Part shown: in pieces, positions 1 through 5,373 of the stretch
Layout of the letters: every line of letters begins with the position of its first letter
How positions within the stretch are numbered: the stretch's first letter is position 1
Assembly (NCBI GenBank): GCA_947304695.1
Contig: CAMZBS010000057.1
Location: 1 to 12,226 of the forward strand
Direction: 5' to 3'
Length of the DNA: 12,226 bases
From: an uncultured Prevotella sp.
Lineage (GTDB): Bacteria > Bacteroidota > Bacteroidia > Bacteroidales > Bacteroidaceae
Position numbers and translations under genes: made by a program
The notes under the pieces: generated by a model
What the model was told of the DNA's origin: nothing
The model's database searches: none
The model's input: only the letters and a program-made list of their open reading frames with translations

Positions 1-111
1 CAACCGCCGCCCCTTCCGCTGGGGGCACAACCGCCGCCCCTTCCGCTCCGGGCACAACCGCCGCCCCTTCCGCTGGGGGCACAACCGCCGCCGCCCCTTC
101 CGCCGGGGTGC
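1..111 (+). repeat. 27-bp in-frame tandem repeat, about four copies
   Basis: Units begin at 1, 28, 55 and 82 with the pattern CAACCGCCGCC-CCTTCCGCT-GGGGGCA. The second unit has CCGGGCA at its end, and the fourth carries one extra GCC codon and a degenerate 3' end. In the reading frame of the host gene each unit encodes nine residues of the type TTAAPSAGG. The array probably continues to the left of the window. It would be a flexible linker lying just before the last helix of the transposase domain, and the near-identity of units suggests slippage-prone copy number. Confidence 0.9.
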
Positions 112-752
112 CTGGGGCGTTAGCTCCGGGCAACAGGCGCCCCCTCTTCGAGCAGGGCTACCACGACCGCATCATCAAGCGCCCGGGCATGCTCGACACC
201 ATCAAGCGCTACATGGCCGACAACCCCCTCCGCGCCCTCATGCGCCGCGCCATGCCCGCCCTTCTTCAGCGCAGCCTCCACCTCCGCATCGCCGGGCGCG
301 ACTACGCCGCCTTCGGATGCCTCTTCCTGCTGAAGCGCGCCGAGAAGGCGCCCGTCTTCTACCACCGCCGCGACCATCTCACCGGTATCCCCACCGAACA
401 GACCCACGCCTTCGCCGCCGACCGCGACCGACAGCTCGCTGAGGCCCGCCAGGGTGTTGTCCTCGTTTCGCCCGCTATCTCCACCCCCGAGCGCATCGTC
501 ATCAACACCGCCATCGACGAGGCCCTCCCGGTCATCAACCTGCAGAAAGAACCCATCGGCCCCTATTGGAAGCCCGAGCGCCGACGCTTCGAGGCCTGCG
601 CACGCGGCACCCTCCTCATCCTCTCCCCCTGGGGCATCGCCGACGAGCTCCCTACCGACTACCAGCGTTTCCACCGCCTCAACGACCTCGCCGCCGAAAT
701 CTGCAATACCACCGATGCCACCATCATCGGCCTCACCGACCTTCAACCATAA
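1..752 (+). CDS. REP-associated tyrosine transposase-like protein, 5' truncated by window edge
   Basis: The frame is open from the first bases of the window to a TAA at 750-752, so the start lies outside. A GTG at 108 could initiate, but it sits inside the continuing frame and would cut the domain, so I reject it. After an Ala/Pro/Ser/Gly/Thr-rich repeat comes PLFEQGYHDRII (141-176) and then YMADNPLRALMRR, which match the end of the Y1/HUH transposase domain. Tyr at 210-212 is the likely catalytic tyrosine. The HUH histidines would be upstream and are not visible. The C-terminal part (about 453-690), with GVVLVSPAIS and ARGTLLILSPW, resembles a Rossmann-like DprA/SLOG-type fold that I associate with Bacteroidetes relatives of this family. 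Inference: a single-strand DNA transposase-like or domesticated protein. GC content is far above the following intergenic DNA. Confidence 0.65.
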   Translation, partial: TAAPSAGGTTAAPSAPGTTAAPSAGGTTAAAPSAGVPGALAPGNRRPLFEQGYHDRIIKRPGMLDTIKRYMADNPLRALMRRAMPALLQRSLHLRIAGRDYAAFGCLFLLKRAEKAPVFYHRRDHLTGIPTEQTHAFAADRDRQLAEARQGVVLVSPAISTPERIVINTAIDEALPVINLQKEPIGPYWKPERRRFEACARGTLLILSPWGIADELPTDYQRFHRLNDLAAEICNTTDATIIGLTDLQP

Positions 753-775
753 ACCGCGAACAGGGGCATTTCCCA

Positions 776-814
776 TGAGGCAGATAGGCACTATCGGTGA
801 GGCAGATAGGCACT
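776..814 (+). repeat. Short direct repeat after the transposase-like gene
   Basis: TGAGGCAGATAGGCACT occurs at 776-792 and again at 798-814, a 22-bp period. ATGAGG also flanks the pair at 775-780 and 819-824. The copies lie 23 bp after the stop codon. They could be a remnant of a REP-like end recognised by the upstream transposase-like protein, but no hairpin is evident. Confidence 0.7.
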
Positions 815-848
815 TTCCATGAGGAAAAAGGTGAAAGTTTGAGCCTCT

Positions 849-870
849 GTGAAAAGTTTGTGAATAGTTT
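849..870 (+). repeat. Left iteron pair
   Basis: GTGAAAAGTTT (849-859) is followed directly by GTGAATAGTTT (860-870). These are two 11-bp units differing at one base, so they lie on the same helix face. A looser copy GTGAAAGTTT is at 831-840. Confidence 0.8.
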
Positions 871-925
871 AATTGTTAAAATCACAAGCTAAACGATTGA
901 TAATAAAGCATTTAAATGTTAAAAG

Positions 926-1010
926 GTGAAAGTTCACGGGTTTTTTCGTAAAACTTTGTTATCAGATTAACTATATACAAAGTTTTAGAGAAAAACCCGT
1001 GAACTTTCAC
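926..1010. repeat. Long inverted repeat, 34-bp arms
   Basis: Arms 926-959 and 977-1010 pair at 31 of 34 positions around a 17-base loop. The outer 20 bp (926-945 with 991-1010) are perfect, and the inner part AAAACTTTGT/ACAAAGTTTT (950-959 with 977-986) is also perfect, with three mismatches between them. The outer end of each arm holds a smaller partial palindrome (GTGAAAGTTCAC). It could extrude as a cruciform, fold in RNA, or end transcription from either side, since runs of T follow GGG in both directions. Confidence 0.9.
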
Positions 1011-1065
1011 AAAAAAGGGCGTAAACGGTTGTTATTCAAATAGTTGCAAAGGTGAAAATTGTTTC

Positions 1066-1098
1066 AAACTTTTCACAAACTTTTCACAAACTATTCAC
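1066..1098 (-). repeat. Right iteron triplet
   Basis: Three abutting 11-bp units on the plus strand: AAACTTTTCAC at 1066-1076 and 1077-1087, then AAACTATTCAC at 1088-1098. On the minus strand they read GTGAAAAGTTT/GTGAATAGTTT, the same units as the left pair. The last units overlap the 3' end of the primase gene and encode its final residues LVNSL plus the stop. Confidence 0.85.
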
Positions 1099-2139
1099 AA
1101 GGTGCCCATTCTTACACTGTTGCAGGTAGTCGGCAATGTCGAACTTGGACTGACCTGCGGGGGCATGCAGACGGCAGAAGTCGCTCACAATGAAGTTGGC
1201 CAGGTCGGCCAGGTCATCGAGCTTCTGCTGCCACTCGTCGACGGCATCGCAGTCGGGCACCACAATGACATTGCGCCCCTGCAGCGGCTGCAGCACGCTG
1301 CGCTTGAGCATGGTCTTGTTGCCAGTGGCCACCCACGTGAACCTGGGAAAGGCCAAGGCCCCGAACAGGGCGTTCTTGGGACTCTCCACGAGCGCTACGA
1401 GGCTGTCGGGATAGCGGCTGAGCAGGTGCTCGCCAAAGAGGCACGACGAGCGGAACACGGCATTGCCGGGCAGGCGGCCCTGGCGCGCCCAGAGGGCTCC
1501 CAGCCAGTAGCAGGAGCCCCGGTCGCTATGGGCAAAGCGTGGCGAGGCGGGGTCGGTGTCGTAGTGCTGCACCTTGAGGTTGCACACGCGCCCGTGCAGG
1601 TCTATGTTGGGAAAGACGGTGCAGTTGTCGTGGCCGTTCATGGCGTAGCAGCCTATGCGGTATTCCTCGCAGACCCACTCCACGGCCTCGGGCAGGAAGA
1701 GTCGCATGAGGCACTGGCAGAGCGAGTTCTCGGGCGACACCAGGGCGTCGACCATTGCCGTGGGTATGTAGGTGTAGTCGGGCTCGGCGGGCTTCACCAC
1801 CGGGCGGGTCATGGGCTTGGGCGCACGGACAGAGGAGGGCATGGAGATGATGCCGAACGTGGACGACAGCCACTGGCATGCCTCAGGGAAGGTCCAGTGC
1901 TCATGCTGCATGACGAAGTCGATGACGCTGCCGCCCTGCCCGCAGCTGAAGCAGTGGCAGCGGTTCTCGCCGGTGCGCTCATAGAGGGCGAGCGAGGGGT
2001 GATTATCGTCGTGCCAGGGACAGAGGGTCTTGCCTACGGTGCCCGAACGGCCTACGTTGTCGCCCAGCCGCCGTGCCACCTCGCTGATGGAGATGGCGTT
2101 GAGACGGCGGATGTCGAAATGTTCGTACTGGCTGCTCAT
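1084..2139 (-). CDS. DNA primase with CHC2 zinc finger and Toprim domain
   Basis: This 351-residue protein is predicted to make RNA primers for a mobile or satellite-type replicon. The N-terminal zinc ribbon of the DnaG/CHC2 type uses C40, H43, C63 and C66 (CPWH and CFSCGQGG). A catalytic Toprim-like domain follows, with the glutamate in LVALVESPKN (E252) and the DxD in VVPDCDA (D296, D298), the metal-binding residues of the fold. CLFGEHLL and WVATGNKTMLK resemble the Bacteroidetes family I remember as DUF6371. There is no helicase domain; that role belongs to the upstream partner, whose stop overlaps this start in an ATGA arrangement, so the two are translationally coupled. The 3' end runs into the iteron array. 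Confidence is high for the domains, moderate for primase activity. Confidence 0.85.
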   Translation of the reverse strand: MSSQYEHFDIRRLNAISISEVARRLGDNVGRSGTVGKTLCPWHDDNHPSLALYERTGENRCHCFSCGQGGSVIDFVMQHEHWTFPEACQWLSSTFGIISMPSSVRAPKPMTRPVVKPAEPDYTYIPTAMVDALVSPENSLCQCLMRLFLPEAVEWVCEEYRIGCYAMNGHDNCTVFPNIDLHGRVCNLKVQHYDTDPASPRFAHSDRGSCYWLGALWARQGRLPGNAVFRSSCLFGEHLLSRYPDSLVALVESPKNALFGALAFPRFTWVATGNKTMLKRSVLQPLQGRNVIVVPDCDAVDEWQQKLDDLADLANFIVSDFCRLHAPAGQSKFDIADYLQQCKNGHLVNSL

Positions 2140-3599
2140 GACTCAAGGGCTACAAGTTTGAAGGACTTCATGCGACTATTGACCACCGGATCATGGCCCA
2201 GGGCCTCCAGACGCTCGATGAACTTGATCTTGCCGAGCGGCCTGAGCGATGCCGTCTGGCAGTAGCTGCGGTATGACTTGTAGAGATCGGCTGCCGGTGT
2301 GGGCACCTCCGAGGGATTGCAGGCCTCGCTGAGGAACAGCCTCACGTTGTCCGACTGCAGGCGGTACTGCTCCAGGGCCTGGTCGCTGATGTCACAGGCC
2401 GAGAACTCGCGGCGCGACATGAGCCCGGGCAGCACGCGGAGCACCCAGCACAGGATGCCGGGCAGCTCCTCCTTGAGCTTGGCCGACAGGCGGCGGTCTA
2501 TCTCCTGCTTGGGAATGGTGACCTGATAGGGCAGAATGAGCAGGCGGCGGAAGAAGCCGAAACTGTTCTCGGCACGGGGCAGGATGTTGAAGGCGGCAAT
2601 GAGCTTGCCATAGTCGGTGGTCTCGCGCGGGTCGCGATACAGGTTCTTGATCATCACCGGCTCGCCCGAGGTCAGCTGCTTGAGCACGTTGGGGTTCAGG
2701 TCCTTGCCGCTCTCGTGCGAGATGTTGAGCATCTTGTGCTCAATGCCCGCCCGCTTCACGTCGTCGTTGGTCAGGTCCGACAGGCTCAGGTAGCTCACGT
2801 TGACCGACCCCAGCAGGGCCTCGATCACATCGAGCGTCACCGACTTGCCGTTGAGTCCCTCACCGTAGAGCAGCAGCATCTTCTCCAGCGAGTGGTCGGC
2901 CATGAGCGAATAGCCAATGTACTCGGCCAGCAGCAGCTGGGCATCGGCAGAGGGCAGCACACGGTCCAGGAACTGCTGCCAGCGGGGGCACTCGGCCTGG
3001 GGGTCGTAGCTGTAGGGCAAGGTGTAGCGGAACAGGTCGGCCTTGCAGTGCTCGCGGAGCGTCACGCTGCCGTTGCTGCAGATGACGAGCGTGCCGTTGC
3101 TCATGTTGAGCCACACCTCGTCGGCGGGAATCGCCTGGTGGCGGTTGGAAGCTAGGTTAAAGGCCACCCCCTCGAAGAGCAGCTTCATAAACGTGGTGTT
3201 CATGCGCAGCGACTCGTCGACACCGCACTTCGCGGCACAGAGGCTCACGAAGTCCTTCCACTGCTGCGGCTTCACCATCTGCCAGTGGCTGCCCGTATAG
3301 CACATTACCGGCTGGTCGCTCCTCAGCCGCTCCACATACTCCGGGCACCACAGCCTGCCCTCGGCAGCAGCTGTCAGCTCGCGTACCACCGTCTCGCGCA
3401 CGGCACTGAGGCTATGGCCCTTGTTGTCGGCCATGAGCCTGAGGATTTCTGATTCATGCGATACCACCCCCGACGCAATCGACGTGAGGGTGAGATCGAC
3501 CAACTGCCGCTCGCGCTTGGGGCGCTGAGCGGCCAACCTGCTGGCTTTCTCGGCCAGTTCTTGCTCCAAGGAGCCTGGGGTTGATGAGTAATTATTCAT
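2136..3599 (-). CDS. SF3-type (D5/P4-like) replicative helicase
   Basis: This 487-residue protein resembles the C-terminal helicase half of phage P4 alpha and D5-type primase-helicases. It shows a Walker A motif in LLLYGEGLNGKS (residues 242-253), a hydrophobic strand ending in acidic MLNISHES (290-297) as Walker B-like, a sensor-type asparagine in AAFNILPR (N338) and a likely arginine finger in FGFFRRLLILPY (351-352). The C-terminal part (about 400-487) is probably a winged-helix DNA-binding domain, as in relatives. The N-terminal 200 residues look like the D5_N region. It is the first gene of a two-gene operon with the primase, together giving the split equivalent of a P4-type replicase. 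It would unwind DNA, probably from the adjacent iteron region (inference). Confidence 0.85.
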   Translation of the reverse strand: MNNYSSTPGSLEQELAEKASRLAAQRPKRERQLVDLTLTSIASGVVSHESEILRLMADNKGHSLSAVRETVVRELTAAAEGRLWCPEYVERLRSDQPVMCYTGSHWQMVKPQQWKDFVSLCAAKCGVDESLRMNTTFMKLLFEGVAFNLASNRHQAIPADEVWLNMSNGTLVICSNGSVTLREHCKADLFRYTLPYSYDPQAECPRWQQFLDRVLPSADAQLLLAEYIGYSLMADHSLEKMLLLYGEGLNGKSVTLDVIEALLGSVNVSYLSLSDLTNDDVKRAGIEHKMLNISHESGKDLNPNVLKQLTSGEPVMIKNLYRDPRETTDYGKLIAAFNILPRAENSFGFFRRLLILPYQVTIPKQEIDRRLSAKLKEELPGILCWVLRVLPGLMSRREFSACDISDQALEQYRLQSDNVRLFLSEACNPSEVPTPAADLYKSYRSYCQTASLRPLGKIKFIERLEALGHDPVVNSRMKSFKLVALES

Positions 3600-3980: not shown

Positions 3981-4217
3981 ATGAAAAACAAAAACGCACA
4001 ATTCTCCCAGTATGCATGCGCGGTGCTGCTCATCGTGAGCAGCATCGCACTGGTGGCCTATCAGGTGGTCAACATCAGCAATGTGGCCACGGGGCTGCTC
4101 TATTATGTGGCACAGTCGTTCCTGCTCGCAGGATCTCTCTTCGGTCTCGAACACTACATCAAGATTGTAGGCAGAAAACTATTTGAAAAACACCAAACAG
4201 AAAGGATCAACCCATGA
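3981..4217 (+). CDS. Small two-helix membrane protein, holin-like
   Basis: The protein has 78 residues: a short basic N-terminus (MKNKN), hydrophobic helices at about residues 11-31 and 35-57 with a short NISN turn, and a charged C-terminal tail (GRKLFEKHQTERINP). Size, topology and the basic tail are typical of class II holins, but sequence alone cannot show pore formation. The stop overlaps the start of the peptidase gene (ATGA), so the pair is translationally coupled, as in holin-endolysin cassettes. The peptidase lacks a signal peptide, which fits a need for this partner. The ATG at 3981 is preceded by an A/T-rich stretch without Shine-Dalgarno sequence, normal for this phylum. It could also be a membrane anchor or an unrelated small protein. 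Confidence 0.6.
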   Translation: MKNKNAQFSQYACAVLLIVSSIALVAYQVVNISNVATGLLYYVAQSFLLAGSLFGLEHYIKIVGRKLFEKHQTERINP

Positions 4218-4630
4218 AAGACAACGTCGTTCAAGTCATACTCTCACCTCACTTCCGTCTGAGCGAGTTCATCAACCCGGGCAAGTACCCCGACAACATC
4301 CCGCCCATGCAGGCCGTGGTTAACATGGCCTATGGCTGCCAGCACCTGCTGGAGCAGGCCCGCAACGAGGTGGGGCCCATCATCGTCAACTCCGGCTTCC
4401 GCAACGCCGCAGTGAACCGCCTGGTGGGCGGCGTGGCCAACTCTCAACACCTCACCGGCCAGGCAGCCGACATCCGTCCCAAGGACCCGCAGCAGTTCCA
4501 GCGGCTGGTCAGCTTCCTCAAGCACCACGCCCTGACCGACCAGCTGCTCACCGGCAACGGCTGGCTCCACATCTCATGGACGCCCTTCACCACTCCCCGC
4601 CACTGCGTCAGGATAGGGTATTACAAATGA
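4214..4630 (+). CDS. M15-family peptidoglycan peptidase (endolysin-like)
   Basis: This 138-residue single-domain protein matches the M15 (M15_3) zinc carboxypeptidase family. Visible motifs are SGFRNAAVNRLVGG, then SQHLTGQAADI with the zinc-binding His and Asp of the SxHxxGxAxD pattern, an aspartate in LTDQLL as candidate catalytic acid, and the third ligand His in WLHISW. Such enzymes cut D-amino-acid bonds in cell-wall peptides; several phage endolysins belong here. No signal peptide or wall-binding domain is present, so it is cytoplasmic unless released or exported. It overlaps the preceding membrane protein gene by 4 bp. No clear intrinsic terminator follows. An alternative role is wall remodelling during DNA transfer. 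Confidence 0.85.
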   Translation: MKDNVVQVILSPHFRLSEFINPGKYPDNIPPMQAVVNMAYGCQHLLEQARNEVGPIIVNSGFRNAAVNRLVGGVANSQHLTGQAADIRPKDPQQFQRLVSFLKHHALTDQLLTGNGWLHISWTPFTTPRHCVRIGYYK

Positions 4631-4660
4631 GGAAAAACTTTAAAAAAAGTGAGTGAAATA

Positions 4661-4692
4661 TTTGGTAGTCTGAGAATTATTTTGTACCTTTG
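4661..4692 (+). promoter_or_regulatory. Promoter of HU-like gene
   Basis: TTTG (4661-4664) and TACCTTTG (4685-4692) are separated by 20 bases, the same spacing as at 3882-3913. The HU-like gene therefore has its own promoter rather than relying on read-through from the peptidase. Confidence 0.75.
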
Positions 4693-4710
4693 TAACATGA
4701 AAAGATAAGC

Positions 4711-4766
4711 GGGAGGCGGCCACCCGGTGAAGCTGGCCGCAAGAATCTAATACCACAAAAAACACA
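4711..4766 (+). promoter_or_regulatory. HU-like gene leader: hairpin, shared motif and mini-ORF
   Basis: A perfect 7-bp stem GCGGCCA/TGGCCGC (4716-4722 with 4734-4740) encloses an 11-base loop. GGGAGG (4711-4716) precedes a GTG (4727) by 10 bases; that GTG opens a 7-codon frame MKLAARI ending in TAA at 4748-4750. The stop overlaps CTAATACCA (4747-4755). The part after the hairpin resembles the leader at 3929-3952, so the hairpin looks like an insertion into a common leader. Confidence 0.45.
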
Positions 4767-4773
4767 AAGAGTT

Positions 4774-5373
4774 ATGGCAACATTAACGCTTGAACGCTAC
4801 CTGGTACGCAGCACGAAGACTACGGCCTATGGTAAGACCTATGCCCGGGTGAAACAGGGCAAGACCATCGGCATCCGCCGACTGGCCCAACACATTCAGG
4901 ATCACGGCTCGATCTACACGCTCGAAGTCATCAGCGGCGTGCTGGCAGCCGCAGAGCACTGCATCCCCGAACTGCTGCTGCAGGGCTACAACGTGAAGCT
5001 CGAAGGACTGGGCACCTTCCGCCTGCTGGCCTCCAGCAGCGGTGTGATCAAGCCCAGCGACTGGACCATCCAGTCGAACCTGAAGGGTGTGCGCATCGGC
5101 TTCCGCGCCGACCAGAGCAACTACTCGGAATGGACGCGCGATGCCCTGTCGAAGAAGCTGCAGCTGGAGCTGGCTCCCTACGTGGTGCTGAAGGGCCGCA
5201 ACAAGAAGCTGGGTCAGGAGCGCGAGATCCAGTGGCTCGACGACACCATCGTGACCAACGCCGTGACGCCCGACAGCGGCGGCGACGACAACGGCGGCGG
5301 CGGTGACAACGGCGGCGGTGACGACAGCGGCGGTGGCGGTGGCAACAGCGACCCCGTGGAGGAGAGACCCTAA
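4774..5373 (+). CDS. HU-family DNA-binding protein with glycine-rich tail
   Basis: This 199-residue protein matches the Bacteroidetes HU branch called HU-HIG in Pfam (HU domain fused to wHTH, Ig or Gly-rich segments). Residues about 30-125 show the HU pattern: helices around IRRLAQHIQDHGSIYTLEVISGVLAAAEHC written in pieces (IRRLAQHIQDHG, then VISGVLAAAEHCI), followed by GYNVKLEGLGTFRLLASSSG, the turn into the beta arm. A basic region GRNKKLGQ follows. The tail from about residue 167 consists of Gly, Asp, Asn and Ser (SGGDDNGGGGDNGGG) and ends PVEERP. It should bind DNA and may coat or bend the origin region; the role of the tail is unknown. The gene is flanked by its own promoter and a strong terminator, so it is an independent unit, perhaps highly expressed. 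Confidence 0.85.
   Translation: MATLTLERYLVRSTKTTAYGKTYARVKQGKTIGIRRLAQHIQDHGSIYTLEVISGVLAAAEHCIPELLLQGYNVKLEGLGTFRLLASSSGVIKPSDWTIQSNLKGVRIGFRADQSNYSEWTRDALSKKLQLELAPYVVLKGRNKKLGQEREIQWLDDTIVTNAVTPDSGGDDNGGGGDNGGGDDSGGGGGNSDPVEERP

What the first reader, a model, noticed from the sequence alone, without database searches (positions are those of the whole stretch)
829..1098. Symmetric iteron-hairpin structure beside a helicase-primase operon: candidate new origin type
The sequence shows two 11-bp units facing inward on the left (849-870), three identical-type units facing inward on the right (1066-1098) and a 31/34-matched inverted repeat at the centre (926-1010). Eleven-base spacing places units on one helix face, as for an initiator oligomer. 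P4-like helicase-primases recognise iterons near their own gene. Inference: this is the cis-acting origin of the helicase-primase module, bound by the helicase or the HU-like protein.
Basis: partly seen in the sequence, partly recalled or inferred. Interest (0 to 1): 0.8.

Follow-up and report, generated by a model that had tools for sequence, protein, structure and literature searches.

The report
Prevotella-like helicase-primase replication origin, SaPI-like
Next to a helicase-primase gene pair in a Prevotella-like chromosome lies a symmetric set of short repeats that is very probably the DNA site where that helicase starts copying DNA, much like the start sites of known phage satellites; in related helicases the repeats and the helicase's DNA-reading end change together.

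Summary
In detail: two plus three 11-bp units face inward around a 31/34 inverted repeat, beyond chance. Relatives show one conserved block: inward iterons at both ends, an inner iteron pair and an AT-rich core; part of the loci (5 of 26 exactly, the window among them) have an IHF-consensus-like site in one spacer. The iteron word changes from locus to locus, but the four sites of a locus agree (0 of 20000 permutations for each of six site pairs). In four of five divergent loci that looked repeat-less, the block sits between helicase and primase, directly after the helicase. In a sibling helicase family the iterons track the C-terminal domain far more than other parts (partial r 0.46); in the window's own family this is not significant (p 0.08). 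Best reading: the replication origin of this module, bound by the helicase's C-terminal winged helix, as in SaPI/PICI/SCCmec rep-ori modules. It is a new variant of a known kind, without the islands' other genes as far as scanned. Replication and binding were not tested.

The parts
849..870 (+). outer iteron pair, 2 x 11 bp (849-859, 860-870); 'R' site in helicase orientation
890..902 (-). IHF-consensus-like site TATCAATCGTTTA (minus strand) in the spacer between inner and outer iteron; consensus WATCARNNNNTTR is recalled
   Evidence: exact in 5 of 26 loci (offset 20 in four, 19 in one), shuffle mean 0.2, max 2 of 300
926..959 (+). left arm of the central inverted repeat; holds inner iteron M' (926-937 GTGAAAGTTCAC)
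950..986 (.). AT-rich core with short inverted repeat AAAACTTTGT / ACAAAGTTTT (950-959, 977-986); candidate melting site (inference)
977..1010 (-). right arm of the central inverted repeat; holds inner iteron M (999-1010)
1066..1098 (-). outer iteron triplet, 3 x 11 bp; overlaps the last codons of the primase gene; 'L' site in helicase orientation
1084..2139 (-). primase-like protein, 351 aa: DnaG-type CHC2 zinc ribbon (PF01807) + DUF6371 (PF19898)
2136..3599 (-). D5/P4-type helicase, 487 aa (D5_N PF08706, DUF5906 PF19263, TIGR01613); C-terminal winged helix from about residue 418 = proposed iteron reader
4774..5373 (+). HU-HIG DNA-binding protein (PF18291), candidate architectural partner
3981..4630 (+). 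small protein (3981-4217) and M15 peptidase (4214-4630); neighbours, membership in the module uncertain

Best explanation
The region is the replication origin (ori) of the helicase-primase module. Shown: a symmetric block directly after the operon, with element-specific iterons at four positions facing inward around an AT-rich core, conserved in relatives. Inferred: the helicase binds its own iterons through its C-terminal winged helix, two hexamers assemble head to head on the two sides, an IHF/HU-type protein (perhaps the linked HU-HIG protein) bends the spacer at 890-902, the AT-rich core melts, and the CHC2 primase primes both strands. It works like a SaPI/PICI rep-ori module.
For: Same layout in aligned relatives (25 loci, 26). 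Own-word hits lie 66-67 bp apart on both sides in L018, L019 and L014; in L005, L012, L013 and L015 the left distance is 66-67 and the right one 77 or 87-88. All six pairs of site positions are more alike within than between loci, 0 of 20000 permutations each, with no such effect in the wrong orientation. Inner pair found once per genome, at the module, in 4 of 12 genomes, reversed-pattern control 0. The block goes with the helicase: after it, not after the primase, in four of five divergent loci. L011 and L015 share one 88% identical stretch, helicase through block, yet all four iterons differ. Sibling ~405-aa family, 46 loci: iteron distance against the C-terminal domain, partial r 0.456, p 0.0003 (floor); the other three regions 0.055, -0.011, -0.103; L135 and L136 differ at 30 of 412 residues, 16 of them in residues 382-411, and their iterons differ. 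C-terminal domain modelled as a winged helix (pLDDT 78-89 per block from residue 421); RFX DNA-binding domain among the fold matches. Published D5-type relatives bind repeats after their gene by the C-terminal domain.
Against: In the window's own family the iteron-to-C-terminal link is not significant (partial r 0.158, p 0.08; 26 loci). In the sibling family all regions correlate before control (r 0.28-0.55), and a sliding window at 81-110 keeps a weaker partial link (r 0.194). Individually 21 of 38 loci pass the inverted-arm test after the primase at p<=0.05, plus 4 of 4 tested after the helicase. No replication, excision or circular form was tested; no integrase among the 30 proteins scanned with Pfam. 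The helicase core was modelled poorly (mean pLDDT 59.7) and no fold match reached E 0.001.
Confidence: 0.78

Rival explanations
1. A recombination (attP-like) site: arm-type repeats plus a bending site around a core where a tyrosine recombinase acts.
For: Arm-like inward repeats, an IHF-like site and a central short inverted repeat resemble such intasomes (resemblance recalled).
Against: No recombinase among the 30 proteins scanned in the window and in flanks of relatives; iterons track the helicase in the sibling family.
Confidence: 0.07
2. A structured RNA, terminator or autoregulatory element at the operon end; the paired arms are RNA stems.
For: L can pair with R and M with M'; most aligned relatives carry a 44-nt terminator-like hairpin between L and M.
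Against: L and M are direct copies and co-vary, which stems do not need; no terminator-like site at 700-1200; Rfam gives 13 sub-threshold rows (12 miRNA, 1 plastid 3' UTR), all far under their gathering scores; the block lies downstream of the genes.
Confidence: 0.06
3. End of a transposable element or MITE, unrelated to replication.
For: Sibling helicase genes are bracketed by inverted copies of their blocks, like terminal inverted repeats.
Against: In the window family 13 of 17 loci show no further copy of their iteron in the locus; no target duplication seen by eye in 17 sibling units; the inner pair is single per genome and at the module in the 4 genomes that have it.
Confidence: 0.06
4. 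A relic origin: once an ori, now inert in a degraded satellite. This overlaps the best explanation, so the odds are not exclusive.
For: Single copy, no mobility genes found, and one relative (L021/G017) has a broken primase frame.
Against: Both reading frames are open in the window and the four sites are kept in step across loci.
Confidence: 0.15

Closest known systems
SaPI5/SaPIbov1 and PICI pri-rep-ori replication modules
   Same: Self-loading helicase (D5/Primase_Cterm type in SaPI5); ori directly after the gene; two iteron sets around an AT-rich region; C-terminal domain of Rep reads iterons (passages of PMC7581432 and PMC6092414). Helicase-family profile matches 7ola 'DNA primase' at E 4.2e-14 (that 7ola is SaPI5 Rep is recalled).
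   Different: Primase is DnaG-type CHC2 + DUF6371, not the AEP type named for SaPIs; symmetric build with an inner iteron pair; IHF-like site in part of the loci; HU-HIG gene linked; no int, xis, repressor or terS seen among the proteins scanned.
SCCmec pattern-2 operon (Cch2, CCPol-MP)
   Same: Cch2 contains a Primase_Cterm (D5_N) domain and binds direct repeats in the region after its gene through residues 400-538.
   Different: Three 5-nt direct iterons; inverted repeats there were not needed for binding; different primase.
Phage P4 alpha and its ori site
   Same: Helicase with a cognate ori site; SF3 class and iterons recalled.
   Different: Alpha is one fused protein and its ori and crr lie apart (recalled); here helicase and primase are separate and one block was found.

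Membership tests
SaPI/PICI-type rep-ori replication module | self-loading D5/SF3-type helicase initiator | tested here: met
   by family only: PF08706, PF19263, TIGR01613 over cut-off; 7ola E 4.2e-14; self-loading not testable
SaPI/PICI-type rep-ori replication module | ori directly downstream of the rep/pri genes | tested here: met
   position of the block; that it is an ori is inferred
[quoted passage not shown]
SaPI/PICI-type rep-ori replication module | C-terminal domain of the helicase reads the iterons | tested here: inconclusive
   window family p 0.08; sibling family strong; no binding assay
SaPI/PICI-type rep-ori replication module | drives autonomous replication | not testable with these tools
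   needs a plasmid test
PICI (whole island) | integrase, excisionase, divergent repressor, sometimes terS | tested here: not met
   none among 10 window proteins and 20 flank proteins of relatives scanned with Pfam; not every ORF was scanned, and the window ends close to the block
P4 alpha replicon | primase, helicase and origin binding fused in one protein (recalled) | tested here: not met
   two separate genes

The most novel reading that the evidence does not exclude
Bacteroidales chromosomes carry a large, fast-diversifying guild of minimal replicons that consist of little more than a D5/SF3 helicase and its private iterons, each with its own helicase-iteron code. The window module is the rep-pri-ori form; the sibling form is a 1.6-1.9-kb unit with the helicase gene between two inverted ori blocks, in some genomes in several copies with different codes, and it may spread by replication from its ends without any recombinase of its own.
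Probability: 0.25. Interest if true: 0.85.

Novelty: new variant of a known kind. Interest (0 to 1): 0.58.

Why it matters
It places a SaPI-like origin module, with a natural series of re-coded helicase-iteron pairs, in the chromosomes of a common gut and rumen lineage. The dozens of natural variants make it possible to work out how the helicase C-terminal domain reads its iterons from sequence comparison, and they raise a direct question: what do these replicons copy, and when?

Tried and rejected
Own-genome searches failed: no whole genome is held for the window. A viral-contig scan with the single helicase protein gave one distant locus, L001 (30%), and an exact search for a double unit gave none. 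Phage and plasmid records hold only relatives under 60% identity, so a prophage or plasmid home was not pursued. The partial Mantel test within the window family was not significant. The wing-residue rule (H with [GT][GT]GA, N with [GT][GT]TA) was framed after reading the data: H 22 and 3, N 2 and 13, Fisher 3.9e-6, six of 46 loci set aside (three ambiguous, three with another residue); column 392 ranked first of the helicase columns tested; of 7 independent contrasts 5 agreed, 1 was neutral and 1 reversed. The IHF-like motif was also chosen after inspection; with one mismatch it is found in 10 of 26 loci (shuffle mean 2.8, max 8), at offset 19-20 in nine and at 12 in L045. One search was a first covariation test whose left part could include half of the hairpin; one search replaced it. 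The repeat count had no control; at least two direct copies also occur in 169 of 230 shuffles, so I use at least four (38 of 46 against 22 of 230). Literature: searches on HU-HIG, P4-family/iteron terms with Prevotella, smalltalk, HU/amidase/DUF4248, VirE/amidase/HU, SF3 iteron TIR elements and Prevotella satellites listed nothing on this module as far as shown (listings; passages of one listed paper, PMC10434189). PMC7581432 and PMC6092414 were seen in passages only.

Rows left out: one search used 26 loci that I judged alignable, leaving out L016, L026, L027, L028, L030, L032, L033, L046, L047, L048, L050, L057 and L058, besides L001, L006, L023, L024 and duplicate loci of the same places; one search left out L016 (contig end) and L057, which one search tested; one search used 46 of 50 sibling loci, dropping L092, L100, L117 and L134 as near-identical or other.

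Full report
What is there. The window is, by its relatives, a Prevotellaceae-like chromosome piece. On the minus strand lie a D5/P4-type helicase (2136-3599) and a CHC2 zinc-ribbon primase (1084-2139); on the plus strand a small protein, an M15 peptidase and an HU-HIG protein (3981-5373); further right are a hisB-like gene, rho and rplI. The finding sits between the primase's 3' end and a convergent gene.

Relatives. A scan of genome contigs with a 20-sequence helicase alignment gave 23 loci, L002-L024. The primase has one match above 60% identity in each of 18 of 18 genomes searched (in G017 in two pieces); weaker matches of 28-45% identity are also listed there. It is patchy: 9 of 201 and 16 of 398 genomes at E<=1e-40, 14 of 299 and 8 of 139 at E<=1e-60, in overlapping samples. 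Of the window's flanking housekeeping proteins, the hisB-like one and its neighbour turn up in one other locus, L015, about 6 kb from the module. Same-strand DNA similarity between loci usually starts near the helicase start and ends within about 450 bp of the primase end (further in L002/L003/L022); L011 and L015 have one stretch over 300 bp, 2.9 kb at 88%, from the helicase through the block. So helicase-primase-block behaves as one transferable unit.

The block. Alignment of the DNA after the primase (25 loci, 26) shows, in helicase orientation: outer iterons (often two, 11 bp apart), a 44-nt hairpin in most, inner iteron M, an AT-rich stretch with short inverted repeats, inner iteron M' reversed, a spacer that is 53 nt in 24 of 26 loci and 52 in two as cut from the alignment, and outer iterons reversed. 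Exact word positions are L018 42/108 and 186/252, L014 43/109 and 183/249, L019 35/102 and 180/246; elsewhere the right-hand distance is 77 or 87-88. The window keeps this plan but lacks the strong hairpin and has a longer inner repeat. The spacer holds an exact match to the IHF consensus (recalled) in 5 of 26 loci, the window among them, at offset 19-20, against a shuffle mean of 0.2; with one mismatch 10 of 26 against 2.8. The other 16 loci have none. Thirteen of 17 loci show no further copy of their own iteron in 11-17 kb. The inner pair of the commonest word occurs once per genome, at the module, in 4 of 12 genomes, and not at all in the other 8, with no match in the reversed-pattern control.

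Co-variation. The iteron word differs between loci (GAGTTTTT, TAGTTTTT, GGGTTTTT, ACATTTTG, GGAAAGTTT, GTGAAAAGTTT and others). For each of the six pairs of site positions, sites of one locus resemble each other more than sites of different loci: 0 of 20000 permutations reach the observed sum, and the wrong orientation shows no such effect (26 loci that I judged alignable). L and M are direct copies, which RNA stems would not need.

Exceptions. Five divergent loci (L028, L030, L032, L033, L058; 43-51% primase identity) show no block after the primase. Longer pieces show that in four of them the block lies between helicase and primase, with its own iterons (CAGGGAGTTTT, GGTGGTGAAAG, AGGGAGTTTAA and CAGGGTGTTTT types) on both sides of an AT-rich core; L058/L163 has only 35 nt there and no block. 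L016 shows none in the 390 nt to its contig end. An individual test of the inverted arms passes at p<=0.05 in 21 of 38 loci after the primase and in 4 of 4 tested after the helicase. The 17 that fail after the primase are L002, L003, L007, L020, L021, L022, L028, L029, L030, L032, L043, L044, L046, L047, L048, L057 and L058; L028, L030 and L032 pass after the helicase, and ten of the rest (L002, L003, L007, L020, L021, L022, L029, L043, L044 and, by eye, L057) still show the layout. Two that pass after the primase, L033 and L050, show no clear block there by eye.

Who reads the iterons. The helicase model has a poor core but a confident C-terminal winged helix (pLDDT 78-89 per ten-residue block from residue 421). 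In the fold search no match reached E 0.001; the top rows are full-length ASFV primase-helicases at about 20 A rmsd, and rank 8 is the RFX DNA-binding domain on DNA (prob 1.00, E 0.025, 74 columns), presumably on the C-terminal domain, the aligned range not being printed. In the window family, iteron distance is not significantly tied to any protein region (C-terminal partial r 0.158, p 0.08). The sibling family answers better. Of 12 genomes with the window module, 11 hold further D5 helicases. The ~405-aa family has iterons right after its stop codon: at least four direct copies of the best 9-mer in 38 of 46 loci against 22 of 230 shuffles. All regions of this helicase correlate with the iterons before control (r 0.28-0.55). 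After control for the other regions only the C-terminal domain does (r 0.456, p 0.0003, the floor of the test); in sliding windows 81-110 also keeps a weaker link (r 0.194), and 1-30 and 301-330 marginal ones. Column 392 in the wing ranks first for a base in the iteron (rule made after seeing the data). L135 and L136 differ at 30 of 412 residues, 16 of them in residues 382-411, and have quite different iterons.

Comparison with the known. [quoted passage not shown] Cch2 of SCCmec binds repeats after its gene with residues 400-538 (PMC7581432, passages). In E. [quoted passage not shown] The window block meets these layout features. It differs in its DnaG-type primase, its symmetry with an inner pair, the IHF-like site and the linked HU-HIG gene. 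In at least 13 of 20 genomes an HU-HIG match lies within 4.1 kb of the primase, in all 13 on the block's side and in 12 on the same strand (listed rows, a cut list; the model also rings in ordinary HU of control genomes). By my estimate from 291 matches in about 61 Mb, about 0.5 such cases would be expected by chance. In the window the HU-HIG gene is on the other side.

Verdict. An origin of the SaPI/PICI kind, in a lineage where my searches listed no report of one, and with a new build; replication and binding remain to be shown.

Noticed in passing
L099-L101, L106-L108, L114, L116, L117, L119-L158: Sibling ~405-aa D5 helicase genes are mostly bracketed by inverted iteron blocks of about 100 bp: 43 of 47 loci have an inverted copy upstream (score >=14; 17 of 182 comparisons with other loci reach this). 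Seventeen printed units span 1.6-1.9 kb; no target duplication by eye. G014 alone holds three copies with two iteron words.
   Followed up: partly
L100 4810-5370, L101 4900-5450 (helicase orientation): Paralogue pairs share DNA beyond the right block, through a small downstream gene, so the moving unit may be larger than block to block.
   Followed up: partly
L095, L104, L115: Some larger (about 600-745 aa) D5 helicases also show short inverted or direct repeats right after their stop codon, by eye; not analysed.
   Followed up: no
window 765-830: Three 22-bp tandem repeats (GGCATTTCCCATGAGGCAGATA type) beside the block; several relatives have other short tandem or palindromic repeats in a like place, by eye.
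   Followed up: no
window 3-752: Convergent gene of uncertain family (PF13524 under cut-off) with a repeat-rich stretch at 1-110; matches to it also lie near the module in L021 and L165.
   Followed up: no
L021 (G017:C23): The primase frame is broken by in-frame stops, while the block after it still shows iteron-like words by eye.
   Followed up: no
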